Below are positions 12,401-56,053 of a stretch of 64,000 nucleotides of DNA, in pieces (position 1 is the stretch's first letter; each line of letters opens with the position of its first letter). The notes below the pieces were generated by a model. That model made no database searches. It was not told the origin of the DNA and saw only the letters and a program-made list of their open reading frames with translations. The position numbers were made by a program, and so were the translations under genes. The stretch is from Annona cherimola (Eukaryota > Streptophyta > Magnoliopsida > Magnoliales > Annonaceae): the NCBI GenBank assembly GCA_030490835.1, contig CM059971.1, positions 75,658,224 to 75,722,223 of the forward strand, read 5' to 3'.

Positions 12401-12786
12401 TGATCCTGTTAGCCCGGGCTAAGTAAATGACACTTAACCTACCTTAAAAACCTATTTACAACAACTTATTTTTATTTTTTCCTTCATATATTTGTTTATA
12501 TAATTATATTTAACATATAAACTAAGTTTTACCATTTTTTGATATGTGTATATATATTTTTTAAAGATTTTTAAAAATAGGAGTATTTTAAATACATATA
12601 TATACATAGATGTTTAAAATTATCAACAAAATATACATATCTCCAAAAATAGTAAAACTCGATTTATATGTTAAATACGCTTAGATAAATAAGTGTATGA
12701 AGAAAAAAATAAAATAAATTGTTGTAAATTGATTATTTAAGGTAGGCTAAGTAGAACATTTGTTTAACACGGGTTAACATGATCAT
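12401..12786. mobile_element. foldback element, family B copy 1
   Basis: The left arm starts TGATCCTGTTAGCCCGGG and the right arm ends ACGGGTTAACATGATCA, its near reverse complement. The inner arms carry the family core (AACATATAAACTAAGTTTTA paired with its complement). The tip holds the perfect palindrome TTAGCCCGGGCTAA. A target duplication is not clear because the right flank is a T-run. Confidence 0.75.
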
Positions 12787-12819
12787 TTTTTTTTTTAGAG
12801 CTTAGAATGGATTATGAAG

Positions 12820-13219
12820 GGGTTTGTTTCAATGCAACCGGATGCATTAAAATTTCAATGCATCCGGCTAGAAATTCCTTTTTTATTATTTTTTGAATTT
12901 TTTTTTATAAAACTCTTAATCTAAGTGTATTTAATCTATAATCTAAGTTATAACTTTTTGTAAATGTGCATTTATATTTTTTTAATTATTGAAAATAGGG
13001 GTAGTTTAGTCATTTAAAAAGTACCAAAATCCTCCTATTTTTTAAAAAATAAAAATATATATACACATTTTCAAAAATGGTAAAACATGATTTATAGATT
13101 AAATATATATAGATTACGAGTTTTATAAAAGAAATTTTCAAAAAAAAAAATAACAAATGAAATTTTCAGCCAGATGCATTGAAATTTTAATGCATTCGGT
13201 TACATTGAAACATTTTTCC
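12820..13219. mobile_element. foldback element, family B copy 2 with 9-bp duplication
   Basis: The two arms of this 400-bp element are complementary. The left tip has TGTTTCAATGCAACCGGATG, the right tip CATTCGGTTACATTGAAACA. The flanks ATTATGAAG and ATTATGAAA agree at 8 of 9 positions, the size made by Mutator transposases. The tip palindrome is ATGCAACCGGATGCAT. The centre is AT-rich and non-coding. Confidence 0.8.
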
Positions 13220-13317
13220 ATTATGAAACACGTAAAAATCCTAATTTTCAAATGTATACTAAATTCTAAGGTTTAGTTAGTTGCAAATCAGTACCAAGTT
13301 TTACGTTTAGAAAAGTA

Positions 13318-13682
13318 ATTTAATGCACTAAGGTACATTGAAACTCTAGTGTATTAGGATGAAAAATTCATTTTTAAAAATTTAAAAATTATGTATAAAA
13401 TTGTTAATGTAGGTGATTTAACATATGTATTAAATTTTATTATTTTTAGAAAATATATTTTTCTTTATTTTTTTAAAAAAGAGTGTTTTAGTTATTTTTA
13501 AATGACTAAAATATTCTTATTTTAAAAATTTATATATACACATATTCAAAAATGATAAAACTTGGCTTATATATTAAATATACTTGAATTAACGGTTTTA
13601 CAAAAAATTCAAAAATTTTAAAAGAATGGGATTTCACCACTGGTGCACTAAAATTTCAATGCACATGGGTGCATTACATCGC
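13318..13682. mobile_element. foldback element, family B copy 3
   Basis: The arms are the reverse-complement pair AATGCACTAAGGTACATTGA (left) and GCACATGGGTGCATTACATC (right). The shared core GTATTAAATTTTATTATTTT and its complement lie further in. No clear target duplication is visible. Confidence 0.6.
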
Positions 13683-13716
13683 TTCTCAAAAATTAATTAA
13701 GGGCAGTTTAATCATT

Positions 13717-13880
13717 GTTATCCAAATTGAGTTGGCGACTGAATTGTTAAAGGTACTAATTTGATTTGAATCAGTTTAACTGGCTAAATAATCCTGTTTG
13801 AACTAGCGATTTAGTATTGCATATTTAAGATGTCATAAATATCTAATTATTTTATATTAAGACATTTTAATGTCCGTAAA
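13717..13880 (+). mobile_element. degraded left end of a CCGGTT-type hAT element
   Basis: The order of words matches the left end of the intact element at 10097: CATTGTTATCC, a GTTTAACTGG segment, TTTGAACTAGCGA, then GATGTCATAAATATCTAAT. Many CCGGTT motifs have decayed to TTGGTT or CTGGCT. I could not fix its right end; a weakly similar stretch sits near 15935-15980. Confidence 0.5.
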
Positions 13881-15515: not shown

Positions 15516-17361
15516 TAGCAAAATCTAATAGCAAACAACCCTATCTTTTCTCACCTGAAGCCCATACTTTGTTCTTTCTCCCCAACTCCTCTCAAAAACA
15601 ACCTATTGGTTGCCCATTCTTAGTCTGCCTAAAGCCCTACTAAGAAAATAGGATGGATGGAGATGAGGAATTTCTTCGCTAGGAGTCAGGGGCTTGTTTT
15701 GCCGAATCATGGGATTTGAGTGTTTTGGTCATAATGAGACTACCGACCTAAAAAAGTCCCGGGCCCAATCCCCAAAGATGCAGGCTCTCTGTGGAGTAGA
15801 GTTGCTCTAATTTCCAAGATGGAGGCTCGCGTTGTTTTTTTAAGTTTGATTCCTATTTTTGAGTGTAGGTGGTAAAGAGAGGGATGGAGAGGGAAATACT
15901 TGATAAATGGTTTTTTTTTAAAAAAAATCTTTAAACTAGTCGAATCACCAATTGAACCAGATGATACATCCAAACTAGGTATTTAAATAGTATTAAAATC
16001 AACTTCTACATCTAGATTGTGGCCAAATGAAGCAAAAGCTAGTGAGTTGTGACACATGTACATGCAATTTGATTATCTAAATACATTAAATTAAGGATAA
16101 ATGCACATTTTTCACATTTTTTTTACTATTTTTCCTATGATTTGACAGTTTAATTACTTAATTACCTTATTTTTTAATTTTATCCATATATTCTAATTAT
16201 TTTCTTATATTTTTTCCACAAATTAAGACTTGGACACAACTGATTAAGGTTGTAATATGGGAATAGGGCGTGGATGCCGCACGTATGCATTCCTTCTCTC
16301 CTCTCCTCTTAATCTTCCCTCATGTGTGCATAGCGAATTATTCCTGCATACTATTTTAATATCCACACTATTCTAATATTCGCTCAGATTGTACAATTGA
16401 AGGCTATCCACAAACTAACTTCGTTAAAGATACTCTAGTCCATTTTCAACTCCTTTATAAAATGTTAACTCTAATCCTAATCATTTAATACAAACAAACT
16501 AGGGTTGCAGGTCACTGAAAGATTGTTAAAATGAATTGAAAACGTGTTACTAATGGTTGGGGTATGGTGACCTGATGAACTTAAAGTAAAATGAATTGAA
16601 AATACGTTATTAATGGTTGGAGTATACTGACCTCATGAACCTGAAATAAACCATGTTTGAGCATGCCTTTGCAAAATTTGAACCCATTGAACTCGAACCT
16701 AATTTGTAAAAAAGTTAATATCAAGATTTAAGCAAATCCAAGCTTAATTTTCCTATTTATATTTAATATAAAGATATATTATATAAATTGTAAGTGATAT
16801 TTACATATTTTATATTATTTATATTTTTGTTTGAATAGATTTTTGTCATGTCGAAATAATATTACAGGTATATTTACATTTATGTTTATATTATTTACTT
16901 TTATATTTATCATTTTTCTTCCTTATCTTATAATGTTTTTCTTCATTTAATTAAGCTATATATTATTATTTTCTTTTACATGACTTGTTAATTTATATTT
17001 ATATGAAAATTTAAACTTAGAACTGTTAATTAAAATAAAATTGTCGACTAAAATTTCAAGTCAAACTTTATTTACATAAATATAGTTATGGTTGAAGTTT
17101 TTCAAATAAGTAAGTGCTAGGGTTTAGATTTTTTAACTTAGGATTAGTGTTGAAGCAAATCCATATTTTATGAACTTTGCACTCCAAATTAATTAGTTTA
17201 ATAATAGAAAATTAAAATAATAAACTATTTAAAATGCAATCCTAAATACTCAATAAATGCTTTTGATGCTAACAATTTATCCAAACTTAAAAAATTATTT
17301 TTTATTTATTATTAATTCAAATGGTTATTGTATTATTAATAATTATGTGTAATTTATGAAT
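15516..17361. other. non-coding AT-rich intergenic stretch
   Basis: No exon or transposon terminus is recognised, apart from a 60-bp direct duplication at 16528-16647. A short CCAATTGAACCAGATGATAC phrase near 15950 weakly resembles hAT arm sequence. Confidence 0.4.
16528..16647. repeat. 60-bp direct tandem duplication
   Basis: Two adjacent copies are offset by exactly 60 bases. Each begins AAAATGAATTGAAAA and contains TAATGGTTGG and TGACCT.ATGAAC. They differ at about ten positions, so the duplication is not very recent. Confidence 0.85.
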
Positions 17362-17730
17362 GGATTTTGATCCTATGCACCCGGGTGCACTTAGCTTCAG
17401 TGCACCCCGTGCAAATACCCATTTTTTAATAAATTTTTTTGAACAGTTTTCTACACAATTGTCAATCTGGGTGTGTTTAAGATGTGTATCAATTTTTACC
17501 ATTTTTGAAAATTTTTAGATATTTATTTTGGATTTTTAAAACTTAGTATCATTTTGATTTTTAAAAATCCAAAATAAATATCTAAAAATTTTCAAAATAG
17601 TAAAAATTGATACATATCTTAAATACACCCAGATTGACAATGTATAAAAAATTTTAAAAATATAAAAAATGGGTATTTGCACCTGGGTGCATCGAAGCTA
17701 AGTGCACCCGGGTGCATAGGATCAATTTTC
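17362..17730. mobile_element. foldback element, family B copy 4 with 9-bp duplication
   Basis: This 369-bp inverted repeat is flanked by TTTATGAAT (17353-17361) and TTTATAAAT (17731-17739), an 8 of 9 match. Both tips carry GATCCTATGCACCCGGGTGC. The perfect palindrome TGCACCCGGGTGCA is followed after a short spacer by a second one on the left arm (TGCACCCCGTGCA). The inner arms hold the shared core TGTGTATCAATTTTTACCAT. Confidence 0.88.
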
Positions 17731-18560
17731 TTTATAAATAATCATAAAAGTAATGACAACTCTTTTAATTTATTGGTTGTAAATAGATTATGTAGGTGAA
17801 TGAGTTAAATAGATAGATTTATGGGTTGAAGAGTTGGACGAGCTCAACTCATGACCACCCCATTTATTTAAAAGAATTATAAAGGTTGTTAAACAAAACA
17901 ACAAACCCAGTTGGGTTGACTAATTCACAGTTTAACTCCAATTTGATTACACTGTGGATAGATCTTACATGATTAACTTGATAAATATTATCGTAACTGA
18001 ATCGGTGATTAAAGTAATAAAAGAACTAGTCTAGTTTGAACCGGTTAAACAAACCAATTTGAACCAATGATGTAAGCATGATATGTTTATGAATACCATA
18101 AATATTTAGTTATTTGTAATTAATTATATATTCATAACCTTTTAATCCATCCATCCATCAGCTATTATCAAGTAATCAAATTCTTTCGACATCCCTTTAA
18201 ATGATTCAATTCAATCTCTTACCTCCCTCACATTCTTTTTTAATAATTTTTTAAAATCATGATATATAGGAATTTTAAATCCATATCCAATTAAGCATAC
18301 ATATCAAACATAGCTTGAAAGTGTAATGAATTTGCAGCGTTAAATAGAATGCATGAAGTATAAAATCGCTTTATAATTTCTGATTGTGCTCTTTCAATTG
18401 CATCTTTACTAGTCACAACACTTTCTGATTGTGCTTTTTCATTTGCATCTCTAAGAGGGAAGAGATGAATTGAGTTTTTTAAACTTTCTTTGGTAATTAA
18501 AAATTTGACCCTTCTGAGGTTTGTTCCCTTGAATGAAAATATGGAGAGTAGATGGAGCAA
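17731..18560. other. non-coding stretch with a hAT remnant
   Basis: No exon is recognised. Bases about 18008-18130 repeat the left-end pattern of the CCGGTT hAT family (GTTTGAACCGGTTAAAC, then GATGTAAGCATGATATG), but no right end follows. A short local duplication (TTTCTGATTGTGCT.TTTC) occurs at about 18376-18445. Confidence 0.5.
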
Positions 18561-24625: not shown

Positions 24626-24997
24626 CTTGGTCCATTCTCAAGCCACCAACCATTTTATTAAATGAGTTAGAGTTGATGTTTTTTAAATAGATTAATATTT
24701 AGATATTAAATGAGTTGAGATTTTTTAAATAGATTAAGATTAGGATTAGGCTCCAACCCATACAATCCGATATGTTAATACCCCTATTCATGGATAATGC
24801 AATTTCTTATTTAATTATATTTTCGATTTTTTTACTTTTTCAAAGCTTGCATTTGAAATTAGAATTTAAACATAATGATGCACTCCTAAAATGAACCATT
24901 GGCATTTTGATATGTAGGGAAGCTGAATGAATGAGCCAATTTCACATTAGACATATATGAACCTTACCCTTAACACAACTCTATTTTTAAATATGAG

Positions 24998-25384
24998 TGA
25001 TCCTATTAGCCCAAGTTAAGAAATGCCCCACTTAACTCACTTCAAAAAATCTATTTACAACAATTTTTTTTGTTTTTTTTTCATACACTTGTTTATCTAA
25101 GTATATTTAACATGTAAACTAAATTTTACCATTTTTGGATATGCGTATATATTTTTTTGAGATTTTTAAAGATATGAATATTTTAAATACATATATACAC
25201 ACATGTTTAAAAATCTCAAAAAAATATGTACACATCCAAAAATAGTAAAACTTTGTGTCATAGTTTTTATATTAAATATACTTAGATAAACAAGTGTATG
25301 AAGAAAAAAAAAATTGTTGTAAATGAATTTTTTAAGGTAAGATAAGCGGGACATTTGCTTAGCCTGGGCTAATAGAATCATTCT
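24998..25384. mobile_element. foldback element, family B copy 5
   Basis: The left tip TGATCCTATTAGCCCAAG pairs with the right tip CTGGGCTAATAGAATCA. The arms continue through CTTAACTCACTTC and its counterpart and meet in an AT-rich centre. It is the same version as copy 1 (12401-12786). The target duplication is not certain. Confidence 0.75.
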
Positions 25385-25583
25385 TCATTTTTAAAATCTC
25401 AAATTTTATTAACCCTATTTTAAAAGATGGAGTCTGGAATGTGTTCATGTCAGATTTAGATGGAAAACTGAACCAGAATTCAAGTGGAATTTGGGTTAGT
25501 ACTCAGGCTATTCTCATTAATTTACATTTGAATTTAAAAAACATAAAGATTGCATGGTTAATCTCAAACCAAATATGTACTAA

Positions 25584-26665: not shown

Positions 26666-26734
26666 AACCCAATATATTTAACCAAACTCAAGTTACACCC
26701 CTGGCCGAAGTTATGATACATGTAACTAAAGATC

Positions 26735-27107
26735 GGTTATGCCTAAATGCACCCGGGTGCACTTAGGCTCAGTGCACGTGGGTGCTTTTAACCCATTTTT
26801 TAATATTTTTTTGAAATTATTTTTTACAAAATTGTTAATCTAAGTGTATTTAACATATATATCAATTTTTACCATTTTTGAAAAATTTTATATATTTATT
26901 TTGGATTTTTTAAAATTAGTGGCATTTACTGATTTTAAAAAATTCAAAATAAATATTTAAAAATCTCCAAATTTGGTAAATTTTGATAAAATTTGATAAA
27001 AATGTTAAATGCATTTAGATTAACAATTTTGTAAAAAAAATTCAAAACAATTTCAAAAAAATATTAAAAAATAAGTATTTACACAGGGTGCATGAGATCA
27101 TAGCCCA
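26735..27107. mobile_element. foldback element, family B copy 6 with 9-bp duplication
   Basis: It is flanked by CTAAAGATC (26726-26734) and CTAAAGATG (27108-27116), an 8 of 9 match. The left tip is AAATGCACCCGGGTGCAC and includes the same perfect palindrome as copy 4. The right tip is shorter (GGGTGCATGAGATC). The shared core TTAATCTAAGTGTATTTAAC lies inside. Confidence 0.82.
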
Positions 27108-29656: not shown

Positions 29657-30007
29657 GGGGTGCAATCGTATGCATCGGGTGCATTGAGCCTCAATGCACC
29701 CCAGAGTACTACATTTAAAAAAAAAAAAAAGATTTTGAAATTTTTTTCATGAACCTGTTAATCTAAGTGTATTTAACTTATGTATCAATTTTTACCATTA
29801 TTGGAGATTTTTAGATATTTTTTTGAATTTTTAAAAATTAGTAATACTAAAATGTCACTGACTTTAAAAATTCGAAAAAAATATCTAAAAATCTCCAAAA
29901 ATAGTAAAAATTGATTCCCAATGTTAAATATACTTAGATTAAAAATTATGTAAAAAAATTTTCAAAAAAATTTAAAAAATGGTTGTATGTGTATACAACT
30001 GCATCCC
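29657..30007. mobile_element. foldback element, family B copy 7 with perfect 9-bp duplication
   Basis: This 351-bp element begins GGGGTGCAATCGTATGCATC and ends GTATACAACTGCATCCC. Both flanks are GGACATCAC (29648-29656 and 30008-30016). The core phrases AATCTAAGTGTATTTAACTT and TATCAATTTTTACCATTATT lie inside with their complements. Confidence 0.92.
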
Positions 30008-30180: not shown

Positions 30181-30428
30181 GGAACCCGGCTCAATGCACT
30201 TAGGTGTACTTCACCCATTTTTATATTTTTTTGAAATTTTTTACACAATTTTTAATCTAAGTGTATTTAACATGTGTATAGATTTTTACCATTTTTGGAT
30301 TTTTTAGATATTTTTTTGAATTTTTTAAAATCAGTGGCATTTTTAGTAATTTTAACAATTTCATGGAAAATTTTCATAAAAATATAAAAAATGGGTGAAG
30401 TACACTCGGGTGCATTGAACCGAGATCC
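30181..30428. mobile_element. foldback element, family B copy 8 with 9-bp duplication
   Basis: The smallest full copy (248 bp) begins GGAACCCGGCTCAATGCACT and ends GTGCATTGAACCGAGATCC. The flanks ATTTAACAT and ATTTAGCAT match at 8 of 9. Part of the right inner arm is deleted relative to other copies. Confidence 0.9.
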
Positions 30429-30437: not shown

Positions 30438-31660
30438 TGGGCAAAATTCAAGCCAATTATCTTGGGTCCACCTAACTAGATAACACTCCGATAACAATGG
30501 GCTTTATGAAATTGTAAGGTCAACTTTTACATCCACGACTTTATAAGTTGTCAAATCTTCTTTTTTAAAACCTGAGGTTTTGGTATTTGAATTTGAGATC
30601 TTGAAAGATTGATATATAATCCAAACCTCTTAATGAAATACATCTTGATTATGTAGTTGACATAAATTCCAATGGTTTTGTTTAACATCATCTCTTTATC
30701 GAGATACAAATAGCTTGCCTCTAGATATTATAATGAGATATTATCCACTTTGAAACAATTTAGTTGCATCGATTTAAAAATGTGTTATATTTTGTTTAAC
30801 TGTGGTCCATTTTATATAACAAGAGGAACTTTCTTTACTTTCATTGCGAGATTCGATTATTTACTATATCAAGCTCTTTGCCCTCTATAGTTTTCAGGGC
30901 TATCATAAGTCCATCGACTTTAACTAGGTTTGTCCCTGAGTTACATCAATCGGAGCTTTTAATAATTTATTCTTGGAACTCTCTTCCCTTTTGATGTGGG
31001 ATTTAGTTATTTACTTTTCATACTCTCTACTCTTTATAGTTCTCATGTCTTTTACAAGTTCACCAGTTTCTACCTGGTTTGCGTTTAAACCATATCTACT
31101 AAGCTTTCACTAGTTCATTTTCCCTCTTTGAACCACATCTATTGGAAGAGATCTTGTTTTGGTATCAATTGTGATGTCTAATCTTGTTTTACTTGGGTTG
31201 ATTTTTGAACCTGAGTCAAAACTTGAAAAATATATTGAGCCCTAGGTCCCACAATGTGCTATTATCACTTTGGCTTATTTGCTCAATTGCATAGTTTTAA
31301 AATACATTATATTTTGTTTAATCTTAGACTCGCTTCATAAATCACCTAGATCTCTCTCCCTTTTTTCGATATGAGATTCATTTATTTACTATATCATGCT
31401 ATCTATCGTTTATAGTTTTCACTCTCATCACAAAATTAGTTCAATAAAAGTCTTGGATAGGTGATAGCTTAAAAAATATATTATCTGTGTATAATATGAT
31501 CAAAGTCGCTTAAAAATTCATATATATTAAAATTTTATAATAATTACTCAATGTAAATCAAATGATTTTATTTTATTAATTTTACAGTTTTATCAGATAA
31601 AATTAATGAAATATATTTGATTTTGGTGAAACTTGTTTTCCTAGTTAAACAAATAATTTT
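30438..31660. other. non-coding stretch with a diverged repeated phrase
   Basis: The phrase GAGATTC.ATTATTTACTATATCA.GCT, followed by CTATAGTTTTCA, recurs in diverged form near 30845, 30990 and 31370. This suggests an old dispersed or tandem repeat. No exon is recognised. Confidence 0.4.
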
Positions 31661-31667
31661 AAATATA

Positions 31668-31858
31668 GGGTATATTTGTTTTTCAATAAAAAATTTTAAT
31701 ATGAAATTTTTACTCTCTACAACTACTTTATTTGTTAATTATTTCTGCACATATTCCTATGCGAACTATCCTATTTTTCAACCATGTTCATACAACTATC
31801 CATACAACTAACTTATTTATTTTAACTTTATTTTCTATACTCTTCATTATACTATATA
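31668..31858 (-). mobile_element. partial family A MITE
   Basis: It opens GGGTATATTTGTTTTTCAAT and carries, in reverse-complement sense, CTCTACAACTACTTTATTTG and CTATCCATACAACTAACTT. The far end is missing after TATACTCTTCATTATAC. Confidence 0.65.
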
Positions 31859-32568
31859 TATAATCATCAAAGTGACCCTGACGAAGAGGTTTCATGAATT
31901 TGTTTATACCAAATATGTTTCTAGAAGCAAAGCACATGACTTAATGTTTTCAAGAGCTCTTAATTAGGGAAATAATTTCGTTTTTTGTAGGCCTATATAC
32001 AAGATAACCTTTTAGAAATTTTTTCAAAGGAAGAAACAATCCCCATGGCTTGTAGTTTGATTAATGCAGACTTGAAGTGAAAATAGATTATTTGTCACAT
32101 TCATTCCTTAAAATTTACCTTGAGTAGGGAAATCAAGTAATGGTCCCTCATATTTTTAATTAGGGCAGTAATACAAATATCTGGCGATTGGCAAAGCCCG
32201 TCCGTGAAAAGCCATATGCATCACAACAGTATCCACAGATGGCAGAACAGTCCTAGAGAGTGCCAAAACCCACTGAAATTGGAAGAATGTAAAGTTCTTA
32301 ATTCTGAACATTTTTACTAGGAACGTGCACTTTTCTGTATTCACTTCTAACTGTTTAATTCTAGGGCAGAAGTAACAAATGTGCAGTTTGGATTGGTATT
32401 AATTCAGTGTCTCGGGTCCCGTGATCCTTTATCCATCCAGACTGTCCATCTGACACATATGTCACCTTGAATTTCGGGCAATGGCTGAAAATTCCTGCAA
32501 TTACTTAATTTGCATTTGGAAAGTGAAAAAGGACGAAAGATTTTGAAATGGAAGTACGTGATACTCTT

Positions 32569-32850
32569 GGGTGTGTTTGGTAATGAATAAAATTTTTGAT
32601 GAAAAATTTTGAAGAATAAAAGTTGTTAAATGATGTGATATGATAGGGGTAATAATTAGTAGTAAAGAGAATAAAGTTAAAATAGATAGGGTTAATTGTG
32701 TGGATAGTTGTATAGAAACGATTGAAAATTAGGGTAGTTGTATAGGAAAATATGAAAAAATGATTAAAAAATATGATAGTTGTAAAGAGTAAAAAGTTTT
32801 AGATTGAAAACTTTTAATTTGACATTTTCTATCAATTGTCAAACACACCC
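32569..32850 (+). mobile_element. Tourist-like MITE, family A copy 5
   Basis: The 282-bp element runs from GGGTGTGTTTGGTAATGAAT to CAATTGTCAAACACACCC. Its interior is very close to copies 4 and 6. The flanking triplets (CTT and TGT) do not match, so either the duplication has mutated or the end is displaced by a base or two. Confidence 0.88.
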
Positions 32851-32869
32851 TGTATAAGTAACGGCCAAG

Positions 32870-33020: not shown

Positions 33021-33054
33021 TTATTTATAGAAAATATTCAAGCATAGATGCAAT

Positions 33055-33372: not shown

Positions 33373-33384
33373 AGAAGTTCTCTC

Positions 33385-34998: not shown

Positions 34999-35007
34999 CA
35001 GGTGCAA

Positions 35008-35640
35008 CTTCACTACACCACAATTACGGTACAGTTACCTCAAAATGGGCTCCACGTGATCATACAATTATAATCTACTCCATCCATTATATTTAGAATT
35101 TTGTATTTTATTACCATCCTAATTTTCATCCAAATTGGATATGTATGTGGACCATATCTTAAAATGATATAAATTCAACGTAATAAAATAGTTTAACATA
35201 AATAACAACTCTAAAGTTATTTTTTCAACATATAAACCATTTGCTATAGAATTTATATATGGATAAATGATTATATAAAGTATGTAATGAAATTGGACTA
35301 AAAAAGTGGTGCAGTGGCAAAAAAAAGAGTATCACATATATTATAATGTACTGAAACTTTATATAATCATTTATCTATATATAAATTTTATAGAAAATGG
35401 TTTACATGTTGAAAAAAAGCACTTTAAAGTTGTTATTTTCATCAAATTATTTTATTACGTTGAATTTATACAATTTTCAGATAGGGTTCATATACATATC
35501 CGATTGGGATGAAAATTGGTATGATATTCATTCTAAATACAATAGGAGAAGTAGAGTATAATTTTATGATCATGTGAGGCTTATTTTGGCGCAATTGCAC
35601 CGCTGTTATGGTGCAGTTGCGCTACACTTGAATATATATA
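35008..35640. mobile_element. foldback element, family C, complete 630-bp palindrome
   Basis: The left half (GTGCAACTTCACTACACCAC, CTCAAAATGGGCTCCACGTG, TTTCATCCAAATTGGATATG) is mirrored by the right half (CATATCCGATTGGGATGAAA, GAGGCTTATTTTGGCGCAAT, TATGGTGCAGTTGCGCTAC). It is flanked by AT-rich DNA, so the duplication cannot be read. Symmetry this long can extrude a hairpin and may be hard to clone. Confidence 0.75.
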
Positions 35641-35711
35641 ACCAAACATGCCTTAACTCTAATGCATTTGATTTCTTCTCATGTTCACGTCAAAATTAAA
35701 TTTAACTATTA

Positions 35712-35712
35712 T

Positions 35713-35746
<34 letters not shown>
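35712..35746. repeat. (AT)n array
   Basis: About 17 uninterrupted AT units lie between two C-family elements. Confidence 0.9.
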
Positions 35747-35749
<3 letters not shown>

Positions 35750-35754
35750 TGAGA

Positions 35755-35990
35755 ACTCTTCAAGTACAGATGGACTGCACCATATTAGGATGCAGTCTGT
35801 TGCAAATAGGCTCCATGTGTATTAAAATGTAATAATATATTATATAATTATTTATCTATATAAAAATTATATTTAAATAGTTTAAATCTTGAAAATACAA
35901 TATTAAAATTATATTTATGTTAAAATATTTTATTACATTAATTTTGTACAATTCTAAAATGAGGCACATACTAATGTTTAATTGGAATAT
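35755..35990. mobile_element. partial family C element
   Basis: It opens with a C-type tip (GGACTGCACCATATTAGG) and AATAGGCTCCATGTGTATT. It then carries TATAATTATTTATCTATAT and TTATTACATTAATTTTGTAC before ending near the next family B remnant. Confidence 0.55.
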
Positions 35991-36160
35991 GATCCTATGC
36001 TCGGGTGCATATACCCATTTATTTTTATTTTTTTGAAATTTTTTTTACGAAACTGTTAATCTAAGTGTATTGAACATGTGTATTAATTTTTATCATTTTC
36101 GAGATTTGTAAATATTTTTGAACTTTTAAAAATCAGTGACATTTTAGTAATTTACATTAA
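35991..36160. mobile_element. family B foldback, left arm only
   Basis: It begins GATCCTATGCTCGGGTGCAT and runs through TTAATCTAAGTGTATTGAAC to the symmetry centre (ATCAGTGACATTTTAGTAAT). The right arm is missing. Confidence 0.7.
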
Positions 36161-36329
36161 TCCTACTCCAACTTTTTTTTTATGGAAAATCCTACTCCAA
36201 CTTTTAATAATCTAAGTTTCGATTTAGTTACTTTTAAGTACTATAAAAATCAGTTTGGGTTGGTTGGGTTTGGTTTCAAGTTTCAACCTAACCCAAGTCA
36301 TTTAAAAAAATATATAGAGAGAATATTTC

Positions 36330-36690
36330 CTGTGTAGTAAAGCTGTACCATAATTAATATTGCATTTTGCCCAAAAAGGGCCCCATGTGTACTTAAATGT
36401 ATTCATATTTTATATAATCATTTATCCATATATAAATTGTATGACAAATAGTTTGCATTTTGAAAAAAAATAATTTTAAAGTTGTTATTTACATCAAATT
36501 ATTTTATTACGTTGAATTTGTACCATTTTCAGGTGAAGTTCATACACATATCCAATTTGGATGAAAATTGGTATAGTAATAGAATATATAATTTTAAATT
36601 CAATGGATGATATATATTATAATTTTATAATCATGCGGAGCCCATTTTGATGTGCAGAGAAGTTGCAACCAAATATTTCTCATATATATA
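36330..36690. mobile_element. family C element
   Basis: It contains AAAGGGCCCCATGTGTAC, TTTATCCATATATAAATTG, ACATATCCAATTTGGATGAA and AGAGAAGTTGCAACC. The order matches the C family. It ends in a TATATATA run 650 bases before the PDF1-like start. Confidence 0.6.
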
Positions 36691-37342: not shown

Positions 37343-40300
37343 ATGGAGAGGAAGAGAATGAGAAGCAATGCTGCGTTGATGTGGGTAGTGCTAGTGGGTT
37401 TTGTTTCACAGAATTTGGTAATGCCGGTGATGTGTGGAAGCTTGGATGTAGCTGCTGCAGGAGATCAGAAGAACTCCAACGGCAACACCGTCCAGCATTG
37501 GAACACTCCAAGAAGTAAGCCTTTCTCCCTCTCTCTCACGCACACCCGCACTCCCATTTACTGTACTAATTTGTTGGGCCAAATATAAGCGAATTACATT
37601 CTACCAACACCAAGGCCCAATGTTGCCAAATAGTTTCGGTGGCACTCACATGCCTTGGTGTGTTTGGTCATGGATTCTCATGGGTTCTCGAAATTCTCTT
37701 TATTTATTGAATGTTATATCTATTAATTTCAATTTGTCTCTCTATCTTTTTGAAATTCTAAAATTTTAACTCCATAATGATTACTTTCAAAAAAATGCCC
37801 CACTCACAATTTTATTTGCAAAAAGAAAATGATCAATTACAAATTTTATTTTAAAAAATATATATTATAGTGAATTTTGACTGAATTTTATGGTGTGCGT
37901 AGATTGCGCACTACCTGTGAGTATTTTTGGAGAACTAACAATTATGAGAAAATATTACAAAAATAAAAAGGGGGCAACTGAATTACTGATTTTAACCACT
38001 GTCCATATTCCAAACCCCATAAAATTAAAGAATTTCCCAACTCCTTTCAGTACTACAAAAAATTTGACTTTTGGCAACTATTATTTGTTGCAAAAGGCTG
38101 AAATTTGGTTGTCAAACAAAAAGTTGTCAATAATTTTTAGCATTTTCATACAGAGACACCAAAAAAATTTTGGTTACTAATTGTTCATGAGTTTTTGTAT
38201 TTATGCAACTACATTTTTGATTTGGTTGCCAATGCATTATCGTAAGGAAGAAAAAATTTTCGTCTTGCAAGGTATCATCATATGCAACGAATTTTTTCTT
38301 CCCATAATAGCGTTATCAAATCTTCATAAGTAAAGAAAATTTTTCTTTTTTCTTGTATATGTAGGGTGTGTTTGGGAATGGATAAAACTTTTGATGAAAA
38401 GTTGTAGAGAATAGAAGTTGTCAAATGATGTGATATAATAGGAGTAATGATGAGTAATAAATAAGATAAAGTTGAAATAGATAGGTTAGTTGTGTTGGTA
38501 GTTGTGTAAAAATGATTGAAAAGTAGGGTAGTTGTATAGAAAAATATGAAGAAATTATTAAAAAATAGGATAGTTATGAAGAGTGAAAATTTTTAGATTG
38601 AAAAGTTTTAACTTGCCAATTTTCATTTATTACCAAACACACCCGTATTTTCCTTAATAGTAAAGATTTTTTTTTTTTTCTATATATATTTTGTGCTGGT
38701 GTTTGACAAAAAATGATACAGTTACTCTACCTTTACTGATGCAATGCTGGTTGCATATATATGCAGGTCACCCCAAAGACCCTCAATGTAAGACTCCTTC
38801 TCATGGGTCAGGTGGCGGTCATGGTGGAGGCAACGGCGGCGGCTATGACCCTACTCCGCTCACTCCTTCGAGTCCCACATACAATCCTGTCACGCCCTCC
38901 CTCCCTCCTCCAACTCCCACTTTCGATCCTGTCACGCCATCCATTTCTCCTCCAACTCCCACTATCGATCCTGTCACGCCATCCATTCCTCCTCCAACTC
39001 CGACGTATAATCCGATCACGCCATCCATCACTCCTCCCACTCCAGCATTCAACCCTGCGCCGACTGTACCTGACCCCAATATACAGCCATCTTATCCGGG
39101 CACTTGCACGTAATTCCTCTCTTTCTCATCGAGAAACAATCGCTATTGAAACACGTTTAACATGATAACAAGATACATTTTCTTTTTGGTTGGCCAAATA
39201 CTCTGTATTCTATGATTTTGTAGGGTAACAAAATCTTGGGTTTAGAAGTTCGAATCTGACCTTTTGGCTCGACGTTAAATAGGGAATTTGCAAATATACT
39301 TACTTAGTTCGATTATAATTTCAAATATGCCCCATAGTTTTAGAAATCCCAAGTAATTCCCACATAGTTTGACCATAATTACAAATATGCCTAAACTTTT
39401 GTGACGTTGTTATTGCAATGTTACGACATAGATATATTTGTAAAAATATACAAACTACGTAGGTATATTTGTGAAAATCAAATATACTTATATAATTTTG
39501 AAATTATAAATATACCCATATTGTGACAGTATAGTGAAGGCGCTATAACAGCGTGGGTATATTTGCAATTATGGCCAACCTATGTGGGAGTTGTCTATAA
39601 TTTTTGAAATTATGTAGGTTTTTTGCAATTATAGTCAAAGTAAGTAGATGTATTTGCAAATCATCCATTCAATTAAGGCCTATTCTAAATATATCGACAA
39701 GTTTTATCCTTAATTCCAGATACACCTACTAACTTTCATTAATTTTAAATTTACTTACATAATTTGCTTAAAATTTTATTTATACTTCTACCATTAGAAA
39801 TTTATCAAACAAGTTGTTAGCTGCTCTATAAAATGAAGAATATGCTCAAAAGCCATAATATGATTTAAGTTTGGTTTGCTCATAGTTAAAAATACATATG
39901 CAAATAATATATAACCCTATATCCATAAAAGTACTAAATTATAAAATCATAATTAGGACTTAAGTATATTCATTATTTTACGGAGGAGCTAACAACTCAT
40001 TTAATAGATTCCTAATGTGACTAGTGCGAATAAAAAGTATGGGGTATTTGTAATTAGGTATAAAACTTATGGGGATATCAAAGATTTGCCAGTTGGAAGA
40101 TTATGACTTATTTGGCCCTATCCTGCCCAACAGAACCGCTATAAATGCGGTCAGAGTTAGAGTGAAGCTAAAAAGTGTTTAATTGAGTTATAGATATGAA
40201 TTTTTAATCATTTTTGTTGGGAAATTAATGAATTTGATGGATGTAGTTTCTGGGGCACGCACCCTGCGCTGATATGGGGGCTGTTCGGCTTTTGGGGCAA

Positions 40301-44700: not shown

Positions 44701-45665
44701 CCCGTCTTGCAACTATGCAAGCATGGAAATCCCAAATAGCAAGTTGGCTTGCTCCAAATCCAACCAATGAAATTACGGCCACAACATTTGCAGCTAGTCA
44801 CCCAAATCAATAGTCGTTGACTCCACGACCGACCACCCAATGCTCTGAATTAGAAACATTAACAAAAAAGCCTACTTTTAATCACTGGCCGACACCCAAA
44901 TATAAGACAATGGTGAAAAAAAATCCAACTATTAAACCCACCATTAGCAGCACCAGCTCTCCCAATTCGTAGCAAGAACCCGTCTCCCCCTAATTCCATC
45001 TCTTTGACCTAGTTCTCACCCATCTGCCAGGCACCGACTGCAAGCAAATGCACCCAAATCAAACCCACCAGCAGCCTCCACCCATTTCATCCGATTCAAG
45101 CAATTTCCATTAATCAAACTCATCAAGCTGCAGTTTCAATCGCTAATCAGAGCATCCCATCTCCTAAATTTCAACCATCACAATCAACAACCAAAAATTC
45201 AATTTTAAGTAAAAACCTAATCTAAGCGATAGCTGTTAAAATTCGACAATCTTCTCCAAGCACCCATTAATCAAACGAGCGAGCAGCTCTTAAAAAACAT
45301 GGCAGCAGTTCTCTGCTTCAATCCCATTGAATCTATAGCAGCTTTCATTCAGACAGCAAATAAAAAAAACTAAGCAGCCATGCTCTAAAAATAGTCATGC
45401 ACCCACCTTCAGCAACCCCTTTGTTTCTTTTTGTTCCAGGCTCGTCTTCAATAATGGGTATAGCTTGTTCTTTTGAAGGTTATGTTCGTCATTTTAAAAA
45501 AATGAGCGTGTAAAGGTTGGAATTCACGTGTTTTGAAACGTCATTATGACTCGGGGTTCAAAATGCAAATGACCAAAATTTCCAGGGTTTAAAATGAAAA
45601 CAGGCAAAGTTTAGGATTTGAAATGCAAATGGCCTAAGTTAGAGGGTTTGTTATGCAAAAAACCC
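41703..45665. mobile_element. Mutator-like element, about 4 kb, no transposase seen
   Basis: Terminal inverted repeats of roughly 130-150 bp match. The left has TAAACCCTTTAACTTTGGTC, then TTTGCCCATTTGCATTTTGA. The right end read in reverse gives CAAACCCTCTAACTTAGGCC, then TTTGCCTGTTTTCATTTTAA. The flanks GCATGATCT (41694-41702) and GCACGATCC (45666-45674) agree at 7 of 9. The interior has two G/T-rich, gene-like but unrecognised segments just inside the repeats (about 41900-42850 and, inverted, 44560-45480). A middle block, about 42842-44420, has its own composition and may be a nested insertion. Short ORFs such as 42211-42714 match no family I know. It is a candidate Pack-MULE. Confidence 0.75.
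42842..44420. other. possible nested retro-element inside the Mutator-like element
   Basis: The block starts near TGTGCGACGCCCCGTTGC and differs in composition from both flanks. It contains segments such as ACCTCGATCTCAATTTTTTC and GTCGAACCCCGAACCTACTC, reminiscent of LTR or processed-transcript sequence. I cannot identify matching ends or a coding domain, so the boundaries are approximate. Confidence 0.3.
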
Positions 45666-46020
45666 GCACGATCCTCTTACGCCGCACAAAATTTATTTTA
45701 TTTATTTTTTATAAACATGTAAAATTGGATATATTTAATCTATAAATCAAGTTTTAACATTTTTATATATGTTTTTATATTTTTATTTTAAATAAGGGGC
45801 ATTGTCGTAATTTTTTGCCTTGTATTTAAAACTAAAAAATTACGACAATGACCTTGTGTTTAAAAACAAATATATATATAAATATATTCAAAAATGATAA
45901 AACTTAATTTATAGATTAAATACACGTAGCTAAACATATTTATAAAAACAAAAAAATAAAAAGAATAGGTAAATGACTAGCCTGGGTTGGCGCCCAACTA
46001 CAGGCATCCGTAAATGATCA
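45666..46020. mobile_element. foldback element, family B-like
   Basis: GATCCTCTTACGCC at the left pairs loosely with GCATCCGTAAATGATC at the right. The inner core (TATAAATCAAGTTTTAACAT and its complement) is family B. It touches the right end of the Mutator-like element, so that element may have inserted at its edge. Confidence 0.6.
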
Positions 46021-47021: not shown

Positions 47022-47867
47022 AAATAATGCTAAGGAGAAAAAAAAAGCAGAGTTTAAGATTGTCAAACACTAATTTATCAAAAGAAGGTGAAGAAAATAG
47101 AAAAAAAAGTTTTCAGGTTTTTTATTAAGACAATTAAAAAAGGTATTTTTATTAACAAACGTACAAAAATGAAATTAATAAAAATAAAAAGTCTTGAAGC
47201 AATTTGATGTAACCTTAGCTATTTCTCTCATCTCCATGATGGATAGAAATTGATGTGCATGGTTGCATTTATTTAATTATATATTTGTGCAAATTACAAA
47301 ACATATATAGATCTATTAGAATGTAATAATTCTTTATAGAAAATCGTTTGTCATTACAATAATGATATTCTATTCAATTCAAATATTAAGAATATAACTT
47401 TAAAATTAATATTTAGCATCAAAAAAAATTTAATTATGTTGATATTTAACATTGGATGGAGTCCTCGAGTGAAAAAAAGGTGAATAAAATAGGTTTTCAG
47501 GTAATTTTTATTACCAAATGCACTGAAATGAAATTAATAAAAAAATTAAAAGTTGTTTCGCCTAACTTCATCCTTTTTTTTAACCTTAACGAGCTATCGG
47601 AATTTTACTTTGTGCATTGTATCTAGCATAATTTAATTCGCTAGAAAACTAAATTTTATCAAACTTAAATATATACATGGCCACATATGCGCCGAGTGAT
47701 TGTTTATGAATCAAAGAAAATATATACATATTTATAAAAATGGTAAAACTTAAGTTATAAATTAAATAAATTTAAATTAACAGTTTTATAAAAATTTTAA
47801 AAAATAATAAAAAATTATATTTCATACCATATATATTTAGAAAATATTTAGCATCTTAACAAGAACG
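47022..47867. other. AT-rich intergenic stretch
   Basis: It contains an eroded half of a family B-like arm near 47735-47810 (AATGGTAAAACTTAAGTTAT). Nothing else can be supported. Confidence 0.4.
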
Positions 47868-49464: not shown

Positions 49465-49559
49465 AGAGTGTCCAGCGACTAGCAGAGCAGCAGCTTCGCC
49501 TGCCATTTGGAGCCGTGTGTAAAACTGAGGTCCACCTTGCGTAGAAATAAAAGAGATCC

Positions 49560-49874
49560 GATCCTATGCTCCTCGGCTGCCTTCTGCATATATCTATTTT
49601 TTAATTTTTTTTAAAACTTTTTTTATGAAACTGTTAATCTAAGTGTATTTAACATGTGTATCAATTTTTACCATTTTTTGATATTTTGATATTTTTTAGA
49701 TTTTTAAAAATTAATAGCATTTTAGTAATTTAAAAATTCGAAAAAATATCTAAAAATATCCAAAAATTCTAAAAATTAATACACATGTTAAATAAACTTA
49801 GATTAGCATTTGTGTAAAAAAAAATTTTGAAAAAATAAAAAAAATAAGTATATGCATCCGGGAGCATAAGATCA
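49560..49874. mobile_element. foldback element, family B copy 9
   Basis: Left GATCCTATGCTCCTCGG and right CCGGGAGCATAAGATC are complementary tips. The inner arms hold TTAATCTAAGTGTATTTAAC and GTGTATCAATTTTTACCATT with complements. No clear 9-bp duplication is visible. Confidence 0.78.
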
Positions 49875-49924
49875 GACCTCAAAACGAAAATCTCGCGGAG
49901 GCGCAAATGCATGCCTTTTGTGAT

Positions 49925-50195
49925 CAGGTATGAATGGTATTGTTCTCTTGTTTTTGATAAAATAGTTAACCTTGTTGTGTAGAATTTATAATTGATTAAG
50001 TTTTACTATTTTTTATAGATATGTATATCAATGATATTTTAGTTATTTTTAACTCTTAAAATGATTAAAATACCCTTATATTTGAAATTGAAGAAAAGTA
50101 TATTTATACATCTCTATAAATGGTAAAATTTGATTTATGCATTATATGCACATAAATTAACTATTTTATAAAAAATAAAAAATTATATTTTTATA
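49925..50195. mobile_element. old diverged foldback
   Basis: AAAATAGTTAACCTTGTTG at the left and AATTAACTATTTTATAAA at the right are weakly complementary, with AT-rich arms between. It resembles family B in layout but not closely in sequence. Confidence 0.45.
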
Positions 50196-50683
50196 AGAAA
50201 AATGTGTATCTATTCACATACCCTCGGAGCGATCCCAAGACAAAAAGTTGACAGTAGAGTTGGGTGGGTAACCCTACCACATATGACAAGAAGTAGAAGA
50301 ATTAACAGTAATATTAGCTATATAATGAGTGCACTTGGTCTCCCTTTCCTCCCCCTCTCCCCCCAAAAAAGCACATGGGTGAAAACAATTAAATCAAAAT
50401 CTACCACAAAAGATTGTATCACTGCCACTTTGTGGCCCACATTAGAAACAATATGACAATCACTATAAAAAGAAGCTCACAAGAATGCTCAAATCAAATT
50501 TCACAATAATCTTCTTAACCTACATAGACAAGCATCATTTGATGCCAAAAAGTACGGCCAAGGCTTCCATGTCCAACACCTATGAGGGTTGTTCTTCGGA
50601 TTCATTGGAGCAATTTTATTGGTGCGAAATGCGGGAAAAAATTGTATTTTAGATCAATAGGAAATGGGGAAATTTCTAACTAG

Positions 50684-50945: not shown

Positions 50946-51482
50946 TAGGTGTAAAAGATAATGCCCATACCTTAAAAGTCTCCCTATTAAGAGCTATAAT
51001 AATTAATTTTCTATTTATTTAAGGTTAATAGATCTATGCAGGTAAAACTTAATAAGTTTTAAACCTTCAATACATATAAAAACTTTATTCTAAACATAAT
51101 GGACTGAGGTATGATCTTATTAGTCCTTGCTAACAATTTCATTTGTTAATTCGGCTATGAAAAGATTTTTTTTTATAAAATTGTAATCCCAAGTGTATTT
51201 TATCTTATATATCAAGGTTTACCATTTAGGAGAGCATATTCGATTTTGCAGAAGCGGCAGTGATGACATTTATAATAACTCATCAAGTCATGTTCTTTTT
51301 TCCTTATGAAACATCAAATCATGTTCTTAACATGGTGCTTTTATCTCCAAAAATATGAAATATTTAATTAAAAGATTAAAAAAATTCCAAGTTTCGATCA
51401 ATTTCAAGTTGTGAAAGTTCATTTTAGAAGTTATAGGAGTCAATGTCTTCATAGAAGAACTGAAGCACTGCAATAACACTTA

Positions 51483-53415: not shown

Positions 53416-53541
53416 TTATAGCATATGCAAATAATTTTTGTTTCATGATATTCTATTTGCACCTAGTGCACCTATTGTTGCGTCTACTTCTATGCGACCA
53501 TGAATATACACACATATGACAAAATATATTTGCTGTATATG

Positions 53542-53787
53542 TTTTTTTTTTTTTTTGATTGGAGTATATTTACAACATATCTCAACACATATCACATTCA
53601 AAGTTCTGAGACAATTCTAACAATATTTCTAAAAGGAGACCACCAGCTCCCAACCGAACAAGAAGGACCATACATGCCCCCATGAAAATTTTTGGTTCGA
53701 AATCCCATGCGGGATTTGAACACGCGACGGGCGGAACGAAAGTTTTCGTTCCGCTCCCGTCGACCAAACGAGCGCCGCTCGTTTGGC
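53542..53787 (-). mobile_element. tRNA-derived SINE, family F copy 2, with hairpin-rich head
   Basis: On the minus strand the B box-like GTTCAAATCCCGC is near 53719. The body matches copy 1 (TGTCTCAGAACTTTGAATGT-type phrases and GGAGCTGGTGGTCTC), with a poly-A tail seen as a T-run from 53542. Flanking repeats are ATTTGCTGTATATG (53528-53541) and ATTTGCTGCATATG (53788-53801), 13 of 14 identical. The head consists of three consecutive hairpins. Confidence 0.82.
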
Positions 53788-53801
53788 ATTTGCTGCATAT
53801 G

Positions 53802-54879
53802 TTGATTTGCAATAAATTCAGCATTACCTACATTCCTAATTGCAATAACATGTGATAACAAAATATATGCTGCATATATTGATATGCAATTCAGCACTAC
53901 CTGCATCCAAGCTTGGTTGCATAAGCTGATTTTTTTTTTTGTAGTGTATGCATTTTTGTATTCTTGTGTGTTGCACTTTTTCTTATATAAATTCGTCCTT
54001 CAAAGTAATTTTTAATGTCATGAATTAATACATATGAATGAACATAATAATTGTTTTGGATTTTTTTGATGAGTATATATGTTACAATCATCTTAATTTG
54101 TATTACAATTAGGCTCCATACACTCATATAAAAACTAGGGAGACTGTTGCCACTACCACTTGATTTCCTGCCACCACTGTGGCATTATGTGGTGGTACCA
54201 ATCAGATAACACGTAGTTAGCATAAATATTTTAGATTTGATAAAAATTAAAATAATAAAAGTGAGGGATTTATATTTTAGATGGATCACTACCTTTTAAT
54301 AGACCCTTTCGGTCCTAACCTAATTTTTACAATTTGGGATTAGTCAACATTCAAATTTATAATTTAAACTAGTTTTTTATTGTTTAATTTAAACTACTTT
54401 TAAATAAACAAGTTGCACCATTTATTAAAATTTTAAGCGCAACACGGGATCTGTTATCTATATATATGTGTAGACACTATATTAACGAGTTCCAATATAC
54501 TTCGCTAGCTAGGATCGGTTCAGGTTAGTTAATTACTTTGTGAATCCCGACATAAACACAAAGATGATGACTTTAACCACCCTTGAAAGACAAAAATCAT
54601 GAACTTAACAAGCTGTTGAAGTTATTAATGCATGCATCTTTATATCATTAATTCAATTCCACTCATGTGACATGCATGTATGATCAACTTGCACTTTCGT
54701 ATATCTATTCTTCAATTACTTCCGGTTTTAAAGCTAGCTAGACATTACTTAGTTATAGTGGTGGCATATGTTTATCAAATGTACTTTCAGTAACATTATA
54801 CAGGTACCTGTTTGGTAAGATGAAAATATTGAAGAGAAATCAAAAGATTAGAGTAAATTATAGGAGGGTAAAAGAAGGA
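53802..54879. other. AT-rich intergenic stretch
   Basis: No exon or transposon terminus is recognised. The phrase TGCTGCATAT.TTGATTTGC echoes twice near 53790 and 53868. Confidence 0.35.
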
Positions 54880-55306
54880 CAATTTGCATATGTACCTACA
54901 TGTTTAACGCTAATTACAGATATACCCCATGTAGTTTCGCAAATTGCATATTACCCCCATATAGTTTCACCAAAATTGCATATTACCCCATACCGTTACC
55001 TACCGTTAATATCTGACGTGATTTTTAAAAAATGATGAAAATGCCCTCATAAGTATACATAGTTTCATGGGATAATATGCAATTTTGGTGAAATTATGTA
55101 AGGATGATACGCGATTCCTAAAACTATTGATGACGATATTTTCGTCATTTTCCAAAATATCACGTCAGACATTAATAGCAGGTAATGACGTTGGGGTAAT
55201 ACGCAATTTTAGTAAAATTATGTGGAAGTAATATGCATTTCGTGAAATTACGCGGGTATATTTATAATTACCGTCAAACTACGTGAATCTAAATGCAAAT
55301 TATCCA
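54880..55306. mobile_element. foldback element, family E copy 2
   Basis: Left AATTTGCATATGTACC and CCCCATGTAGTTTCGCAAAT are mirrored by TGCATTTCGTGAAATTACGC and GAATCTAAATGCAAATT. Central segments with AAAATGCCCTCATAAGTAT and their counterparts complete the palindrome. Confidence 0.7.
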
Positions 55307-55651
55307 TAAAAGAATACAAAATTTGCCCAAGTTGGGCAACTTTATATTTTTCTGTTTTGTAATATCTTGATGCAGTGGCAAAGGGGTGTACTTGAAAATT
55401 TTCAGAGGTCATCAGGTGGTGGTTAAGTATAGTTAATGCTTGCGTACTCGTTATAACATGCAGAAAGCTCTTTCGTTTTTATCCCATTGGTTTGTACCTT
55501 TGAATACAAGCCATCAATTTACGTATTCGATTGATGTAATTCGGAAGGGGAAAGTATTAAAATTTAGAAAATTTTCCGAATTTAAAATTAAAAAAAATGA
55601 GGCTGCGTTGTGTTAAAATAAAAAGTGTACCGGCATTGCCCTATAAAAATT

Positions 55652-56053
55652 GGGACGCAATCTCCTGCGACGCAATCTCCTGCGCCCGGGAGCAAGCAGC
55701 GCTCCCTGCTCCCGGGCGCATATACTTTTTTTTTTATTATTTTTTTTTTTAAATTTTTTTCATAGAACTGTTAATTTAGGTGTAGTTAACATGTGTATAA
55801 ATTTTTACCATTTTTAGAGTATTTTAGATATTTATTTTTTATTTTTTAAAATCAGTGGCATTTTAGGTAATTTTAAATTACGAAAATGCCACTAATTTTC
55901 AAAAATCAAAAATAAATATCTAAAATATCCCTAAAATGGTAAAAATTTATACACATGTTAAATACACCTATATTAACATTAAAAAAATTCAAAAAAAAAT
56001 AATAAAAAAAGGTGTGTGCGCTGCCTGCTCCCGGGCGCAGGAGATTGCGTCCC
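55652..56053. mobile_element. foldback element, family B copy 10 with perfect 9-bp duplication and GC-rich tips
   Basis: This 402-bp element runs from GGGACGCAATCTCCTGCG to CGCAGGAGATTGCGTCCC. It is flanked by ATAAAAATT on both sides (55643-55651, 56054-56062). The left tip carries a 16-base internal duplication (GACGCAATCTCCTGC twice) and a nested hairpin with arms GCCCGGGAGCA and TGCTCCCGGGC. The inner core (CATGTGTATAAATTTTTACC) is the common family B sequence. Confidence 0.94.

What the first reader, a model, noticed from the sequence alone, without database searches (positions are those of the whole stretch)
12401..56053. A foldback transposon family whose tip palindromes change sequence but keep pairing
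About twelve family B foldbacks share the same inner arms (TTAATCTAAGTGTATTTAAC, GTATCAATTTTTACCAT), but their outer 30-60 bases differ between copies. In each copy the tip contains a short palindrome centred on CCGG or CCCGGG: TTAGCCCGGGCTAA (12401), ATGCAACCGGATGCAT (12820), TGCACCCGGGTGCA (17362, 26735), and GCCCGGGAGCA with its complement (55652). The flanking halves change together, and the left and right tips of one element match each other better than other elements. This covariation suggests selection for a hairpin, or copying of one arm from the other during transposition or repair. Six copies show 9-bp target duplications, pointing to Mutator-type mobilisation. I know of no described family with this tip behaviour, but I could not search.
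Basis: partly seen in the sequence, partly recalled or inferred. Interest (0 to 1): 0.75.

Follow-up and report, generated by a model that had tools for sequence, protein, structure and literature searches.

The report
Plant foldback transposons with covarying tip hairpins
This is a family of small plant transposons whose end sequences differ from copy to copy while a short hairpin near the end stays able to pair, more likely because DNA copying errors at hairpins rewrite one side from the other than because the hairpin is needed.

Summary
The window (a plant, nearest Annonaceae) holds 11 two-armed family-B foldbacks; 8 of 11 have a 9-bp flanking duplication at 8/9 or better, 4 perfect (control 4 of 110). 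They look like short Mutator-type elements; no transposase was seen. Tips share one skeleton with four alternating half-sites, H1-H2-spacer-H3-H4. Between elements tips differ more than inner arms, while left and right tips of one element resemble each other. The hairpin H2-spacer-H3 covaries better: 8 of 9 pairs in 14 arms, 7 of 9 with one arm per element, 5 of 9 inside the main class. B8 lacks this hairpin on both arms yet has an 8/9 duplication, so the hairpin may be dispensable. With one inverted spacer and deletions across the hairpin, this favours replication template switching over selection, moderately. One window only; the own-genome search did not complete.

The parts
12396..12788 (.). 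element B1 (TTAG tip class); hairpin units 12409-12447 (+) and 12737-12777 (-)
   Evidence: (8/9 duplication, low complexity)
12819..13218 (.). element B2; duplication 12810-12818 / 13219-13227 (8/9); hairpin units 12833-12872 (+), 13165-13204 (-)
13305..13691 (.). element B3, no convincing duplication; hairpin units 13324-13363 (+), 13634-13673 (-); spacer matches B2 better when inverted
17362..17730 (.). element B4; duplication 17353-17361 / 17731-17739 (8/9); hairpin units 17376-17414 (+), 17678-17716 (-)
24992..25386 (.). element B5 (TTAG tip class); duplication ATTTTTAAA at 24983-24991 / 25387-25395 (9/9); hairpin units 25006-25045 (+), 25332-25372 (-)
26734..27106 (.). element B6; duplication ACTAAAGAT (9/9); left arm long with hairpin unit 26748-26786, right arm short
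29657..30007 (.). element B7; duplication GGACATCAC (9/9); left arm long with hairpin unit 29671-29708, right arm short with a different 7-bp hairpin at 29982-29999
30181..30428 (.). element B8; duplication ATTTAACAT/ATTTAGCAT (8/9); both arms short, without the H2-H3 hairpin
45640..46000 (.). element B9, approximate ends, no convincing duplication; tips do not follow the family skeleton
49553..49880 (.). element B10, no convincing duplication; both arms short
55652..56053 (.). element B11; duplication ATAAAAATT at 55643-55651 / 56054-56062 (9/9); left hairpin unit 55681-55720 pairs over 14 bp; right arm lacks the inner half of the hairpin
35984..36136 (+). one-armed copy B12 (short tip)
51108..51233 (+). 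one-armed copy B13 (TTAG class); hairpin unit 51120-51159, register chosen by pairing
17383..17407 (+). example of the covarying hairpin H2-spacer-H3 (B4 left arm)

Best explanation
These are short non-autonomous Mutator-type foldback elements (248-402 bp for those with a target duplication). Most arms end in a tip of four alternating inverted half-sites, H1-H2-spacer-H3-H4 (main type TGCACCC GGGTGCA spacer TGCACCC GGGTGCA, variably decayed), followed by an AT-rich inner arm. Because H2 and H3 (and more weakly H1 and H4) are inverted repeats, the strand can fold there during replication or repair. Template switching between the two sides then (a) rewrites one side from the other, so sequence changes but pairing stays, (b) can invert the spacer, and (c) deletes the hairpin between repeated half-sites, giving the short arms. 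New lineages start from an element whose two arms are alike, so both tips carry the lineage's version into new copies; after insertion the tips decay. Shown here: target duplications, half-site anatomy, paired changes in H2:H3, element-specific tips, short arms. Inferred: the polymerase mechanism, the direction long to short, the founder model, and a Mutator-type transposase elsewhere in the genome.
For: H2:H3 has changes on both sides in 8 of 9 pairs over 14 long arms (11 of 500 shuffles), 25 of 125 cells (0 of 500); sliding the partner by 1-3 columns drops pairing from 87% to 25-41%. The count is 7 of 9 with one arm per element (11 of 500), 7 of 9 with B13 also left out (2 of 500) and 5 of 9 inside the TGCA class (7 of 500). 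Pairing of H2 with an arm's own H3 is 0.77, with H3 of other elements of the same class 0.67, permutation p 0.003. Neighbouring positions differ as one block, TGCA against TTAG, in H1 and H2 and partly in H3. The B2 and B3R spacers match at 11 of 12 as reverse complement against 9 of 12 forward; random substitution at the observed forward distance gives this in 0.5% of trials. Arm homogenisation and spacer inversion are described footprints of template switching between short inverted repeats (PMC8604942, passages), and template switching can make compensatory changes and maintain stems (PMC8794818, abstract and section 7). B11's right arm lacks 17 bp of the hairpin that its left arm has, between GCGC repeats, and B6's right arm fits a deletion between H1 and H3. 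B8 has both arms short and an 8/9 duplication. Folding: 7 of 24 family-B tips at z below -3 against 6% of 150 random 72-mers; of 12 tips from 6 other foldback intervals (one is the inner part of B9) 1 is below -2 and none below -3.
Against: One window only; 14 long arms from 9 elements; shuffle controls do not remove relatedness. I chose the hairpin boundaries knowing that they pair; in the alignment of whole arms H3 of the TTAG class sits about one column off the register used in A1, and B13 is aligned there as a short arm. The outermost 14 columns, outside the hairpin, are as variable between elements (0.48) as the hairpin (0.52), so a hairpin hotspot alone does not explain tip turnover. The transversion excess of between-element hairpin changes (ts/tv 0.80) comes mostly from the class split: 0.65 across classes, 1.02 within a class, against 1.10 for inner arms. 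H1:H4 pairs in 61.9% of cells, with 4 of 7 pairs changed on both sides (93 of 500 shuffles reach that). Seventeen of 24 tips do not fold at z below -3; B1 left folds no better than shuffles. The inverted-spacer case rests on one pair of elements, and over the whole 26-nt hairpin the margin is 20 against 18; B13 against B1/B5 is mixed.
Confidence: 0.47

Rival explanations
1. Selection for a hairpin or cruciform: the tip hairpin is recognised by shape (by transposase or a host factor), so compensatory changes are favoured whatever the sequence.
For: Changes on both sides in 8 of 9 pairs. B11, with a perfect duplication and 0.94 identical inner arms, has a 14-bp stem on its left side.
Against: 8 of 22 aligned arms lack the hairpin or its inner half, among them both arms of B8, which bears an 8/9 duplication; B6, B7 and B11, all with 9/9 duplications, each have a short right arm. 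Loss after insertion cannot be excluded for these. No function was tested.
Confidence: 0.21
2. Ordinary subfamilies: the ancestor had a palindromic tip, a few lineages fixed different tips, and the pairing is inherited; the covariation counts a handful of old events many times.
For: The TTAG class (B1, B5, B13) accounts for all both-sided changes of H1:H2; permutation of arms goes from p 0.0002 to p 0.07 for H1:H2 when kept inside classes.
Against: H2:H3 still shows 5 of 9 pairs changed on both sides inside the TGCA class (7 of 500 shuffles; 7 cells, 3 of 500), and the loop-side pair (columns 15/27) has four standard pair types across both classes.
Confidence: 0.24
3. Several distinct Mutator-type families with their own transposases and ends, which share inner arms through recombination or nested capture.
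For: Tips diverge more than inner arms between elements (between minus within 0.26 against 0.08).
Against: Tips of both classes align on one recurring skeleton, TGATCCTA-half-sites-AATACCC, so they share descent; B9 is the exception.
Confidence: 0.08

Closest known systems
MuTAnT, a Mutator-like foldback family of Medicago truncatula (PMC4486113; passages and one section seen)
   Same: 90% of copies are 200-300 bp, foldback built from four similar segments, GGGG-type ends, 9-nt target duplications, Mutator-type assignment.
   Different: MuTAnT targets TA microsatellites and has a putative autonomous partner; the parts seen describe no covarying tip hairpin. None of the family-B duplications seen is a TA repeat, and no partner was found here.
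FARE foldbacks of Arabidopsis and Jittery of maize (as mentioned in PMC4486113; the FARE paper is not held)
   Same: Long palindromic or inverted arms, classed with Mutator-like elements.
   Different: Their tips were not compared here; that autonomous or coding members exist in those families is recalled, except that Jittery's transposase is named.
Tm1 of root-knot nematodes (PMC3169594, passages)
   Same: Composite inverted repeats, 8-10 bp (most often 9) duplications in 45 of 53 complete copies, MITE-like short forms, Mutator-type transposase in one copy.
   Different: Arms made largely of a variable number of 13-15 bp units with named outer motifs, whereas family B has a shared inner arm and variable tips.
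Helitron 3' hairpins (recalled, no call)
   Same: Hairpin near the end whose sequence varies between families.
   Different: Helitrons have no inverted repeats and no 9-bp duplications; family B has both.

Membership tests
Mutator-like elements (MULE), non-autonomous | 9-11 bp target site duplication (PMC3310237 passage) | tested here: met
   8 of 11 elements at 8/9 or better, 4 of 11 perfect; control 4 of 110
Mutator-like elements (MULE), non-autonomous | long terminal inverted repeats (100-500 bp typical, PMC3310237 passage) | tested here: met
   self-inverted matches span B1-B5, B10 and B11 nearly end to end; they cover 278 of 373 bp in B6, 235 of 351 in B7 and only about 64-bp arms in B8
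Mutator-like elements (MULE), non-autonomous | G at the outer end (recalled as usual for the superfamily; GGGG in MuTAnT) | tested here: met
   12 of 14 ends of the 7 elements with a clear duplication start with G (exceptions B5 left T, B6 left C)
Mutator-like elements (MULE), non-autonomous | mobilised by a mudrA-type transposase | not testable with these tools
   8 of 25 listed window ORFs scanned against Pfam gave no transposase; the own-genome search did not complete
Foldback elements | arms so long that the strand folds back on itself | tested here: met
   self-inverted matches span most elements (B8 only in part)
Helitron | no inverted repeats and no target duplication (recalled) | tested here: not met
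   both present
Template-switch (quasipalindrome) mutation | homogenised arms in blocks | tested here: met
   TGCA/TTAG block in H1 and H2, partly H3; H2:H3 covariation; the pattern fits but does not prove the mechanism
Template-switch (quasipalindrome) mutation | spacer inversion | tested here: inconclusive
   B2 against B3R 11/12 inverted, 9/12 forward; against B3L 9 and 7; B13 against B1/B5 mixed

The most novel reading that the evidence does not exclude
The tip of a Mutator-type element is a self-rewriting hairpin: template switching keeps regenerating an end that pairs but has no fixed sequence, so lineages acquire new end sequences on both arms while staying mobile, because the enzyme reads the inner arm or the shape rather than the tip letters. 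This would be a route by which a transposon changes its ends without losing mobility.
Probability: 0.2. Interest if true: 0.7.

Novelty: new variant of a known kind. Interest (0 to 1): 0.42.

Why it matters
Compensatory change is usually read as proof of function. Here is a natural DNA case, in elements with no known function for the hairpin, where paired change goes with a likely spacer inversion and with loss of the hairpin in inserted copies. It could serve as a test bed for separating mutation-driven from selection-driven covariation, and it bears on how transposon ends, normally the most constrained part, can diverge while inner arms stay alike.

Tried and rejected
Pairwise identity without counting gaps was dropped because gapped alignments inflated it; the column-based measure replaced it, after a first script failed. 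The H1:H2 palindrome as the main covarying unit was rejected. H1:H4 as an outer stem is weak: mis-specified its seventh pair, and repeats it correctly. Three pairings were counted on A1 in all. A transversion bias as support was withdrawn after one search showed that it comes mostly from the class split; I lowered the best explanation from 0.50 to 0.47 for that. Tip-specific left-right copying after insertion was rejected because tips are no more alike than inner arms within an element. Exact-pattern scans found 0 in viral contigs and 0 in genome contigs, which are not plant collections. Rfam gave no match at gathering scores. Literature: in the 10 searches made I saw listings only, capped (12 of 65; 12 of 26); none of the titles or abstract starts shown described a covarying tip hairpin in a Mutator-type element. 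Most subscription papers are not held, so this is no proof of absence.
Full report
What is there. The window is plant DNA: a VQ-motif gene at 619-1359 (Pfam PF05678) is 90% identical to a protein of Asimina triloba, with Magnolia next, so the organism is probably in or near Annonaceae. A self-comparison on the opposite strand shows many foldbacks. A profile of the inner arms finds 26 stretches at E below 1e-5. I group them into 11 two-armed elements (B1-B11), two one-armed copies with tips (B12, B13) and degenerate remains (B14 at about 49950-50196, B15 at about 47700-47830).

Target duplications. With a search limited to nearly matched offsets, 4 of 11 elements have a perfect 9-bp duplication (B5, B6, B7, B11) and 4 of 11 have 8/9 (B1, B2, B4, B8; B1 is low complexity). 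Pairing the left flank of one element with the right flank of another gives 8/9 or better in 4 of 110 cases. A wider search gave no convincing duplication for B3, B9 or B10. Long arms, 9-bp duplications and G at 12 of 14 ends of the seven clear cases fit non-autonomous Mutator-type elements. No transposase was seen in the 8 of 25 listed ORFs that were scanned.

Tip anatomy. Aligning 22 arms (24 minus the two of B9, whose tips do not follow the skeleton) shows a recurring, variably decayed skeleton: a G-rich start, TGATCCTA, then half-sites H1 (TGCACCC), H2 (GGGTGCA), a 7-9 nt spacer with two closing bases on each side, H3 (TGCACCC), H4, then AATACCC and a T tract. I count 14 arms as long, with all four half-sites (B13 by my own register; MAFFT aligned it as short), and 8 as short (B6R, B7R, B8L, B8R, B10L, B10R, B11R, B12L). 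In short arms the part from H2 to H3 is missing or cut; B6R fits a deletion between H1 and H3, and B11R lacks 17 bp relative to B11L between GCGC repeats. B1, B5 and B13 carry TTAG in place of TGCA in H1 and H2, and TTA in H3.

Are tips element-specific? Yes on average. Within/between identities are 0.74/0.48 (outermost), 0.75/0.52 (hairpin) and 0.81/0.73 (inner arm); in 5000 shuffles of which right arm goes with which left arm, the observed mean was reached with frequency 0.0000, 0.0002 and 0.0000. The left arm's best match is its own right arm in 5, 4 and 4 of 10 elements. Between-minus-within divergence is 0.255 (outermost), 0.263 (hairpin) and 0.079 (inner): tips had diverged about three times more than inner arms, apparently before insertion and on both arms together. 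Tips are not more alike than inner arms within one element, so there is no sign of later tip copying between arms.

What covaries? On a MAFFT alignment of 14 long-arm hairpin units (A1; unit boundaries chosen by me), H2 plus two bases against two bases plus H3 forms standard pairs in 87.2% of 125 cells against 66.1% in shuffles; 8 of 9 pairs have a change on both sides (11 of 500 shuffles reach it), 25 cells (0 of 500), covariation score 0.603 (0 of 500); sliding the partner gives 25-41%. With one arm per element: 88.9%, 7 of 9 pairs (11 of 500). Without B13 as well: 91.7%, 7 of 9 (2 of 500). Inside the TGCA class: 91.4%, 5 of 9 pairs (7 of 500), 7 cells (3 of 500). So its covariation is the TGCA/TTAG split. 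H1:H4 is weak: 61.9% paired, 4 of 7 pairs (93 of 500), score reached by 6 of 500. The shuffles ignore relatedness, as the tool warns. My own permutation of arms gave the same order: H2:H3 p 0.003 and H1:H2 p 0.07 inside classes.

Folding. Of 24 tips of 72 nt, 7 have z below -3, against 6% of 150 random window segments; inner arms of the same elements average z 0.05. Twelve tips of six other foldback intervals (one of them the inner part of B9) give 1 at z below -2 and none below -3. I folded 6 of the 14 hairpin units alone: 5 have z of -4.8 to -5.8 and B1 left has 0.27. So the hairpin is strong in some copies and decayed in others.

Mechanism. Two results lean towards mutation-driven pairing. 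First, B8 has both arms short and bears an 8/9 duplication, and B6, B7 and B11 with perfect duplications each have one short arm; the hairpin seems not to be needed on every mobile end, unless all deletions came after insertion, which I cannot exclude. Second, the spacers of B2 and B3R match better inverted (11/12 against 9/12; 0.5% by random substitution), though over the whole 26-nt hairpin the margin is only 20 against 18. Arm homogenisation and spacer inversion are described outcomes of template switching between short inverted repeats (PMC8604942, passages), which can also make compensatory changes in stems (PMC8794818, abstract and section 7). A third argument, a transversion bias, failed its check: ts/tv in the hairpin is 0.65 across classes but 1.02 within a class, close to 1.10 for inner arms. 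I therefore prefer template switching (0.47) over selection (0.21) and over plain subfamily inheritance (0.24). The outermost bases, outside the hairpin, vary as much, so something more general also lets the tip drift; one possibility is that the enzyme reads the inner arm. Maize MURA binds a conserved motif of about 32 bp within the inverted repeats (PMC3310237, passage; its position inside the arm is recalled).

Comparison and verdict. The element type is known: MuTAnT of Medicago is the nearest in size and build that I saw, and Tm1 shares composite arms and 9-bp duplications. The covarying tip hairpin in such a family is what may be new; ten searches of the open-licence library listed no such report, but most of the transposon literature is not held there. 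The key test, all copies in the genome, could not be run: the search did not complete 13 times. I rate it a new variant of a known kind with interest 0.42.

Noticed in passing
55654-55683: B11's left tip holds a tandem duplication of GACGCAATCTCCTGC; the right tip has one copy (56037-56051).
   Followed up: partly
29982-29999: B7's right tip forms its own hairpin, GTTGTATACACATACAAC (minus strand), unlike the left tip; it may be an inner stretch rewritten from the outer one.
   Followed up: partly
45980-46005: B9's right tip has a quasi-palindrome, GCCTGTAGTTGGGCGCCAACCCAGGC (minus strand), that does not fit the family skeleton.
   Followed up: partly
39286-39661 and 54877-55305: A second kind of foldback with similar AATTTGCAAATATACC / AATTTGCATATGTACC-like arm starts; of its 4 tips one folds at z -2.3, the others do not stand out.
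   Followed up: partly
31560-36653: A dense nest of mutually inverted repeats, including a 1.2-kb self-inverted stretch at 34111-35283.
   Followed up: no
619-1359: VQ-motif gene, 90% identical to an Asimina triloba protein.
   Followed up: yes
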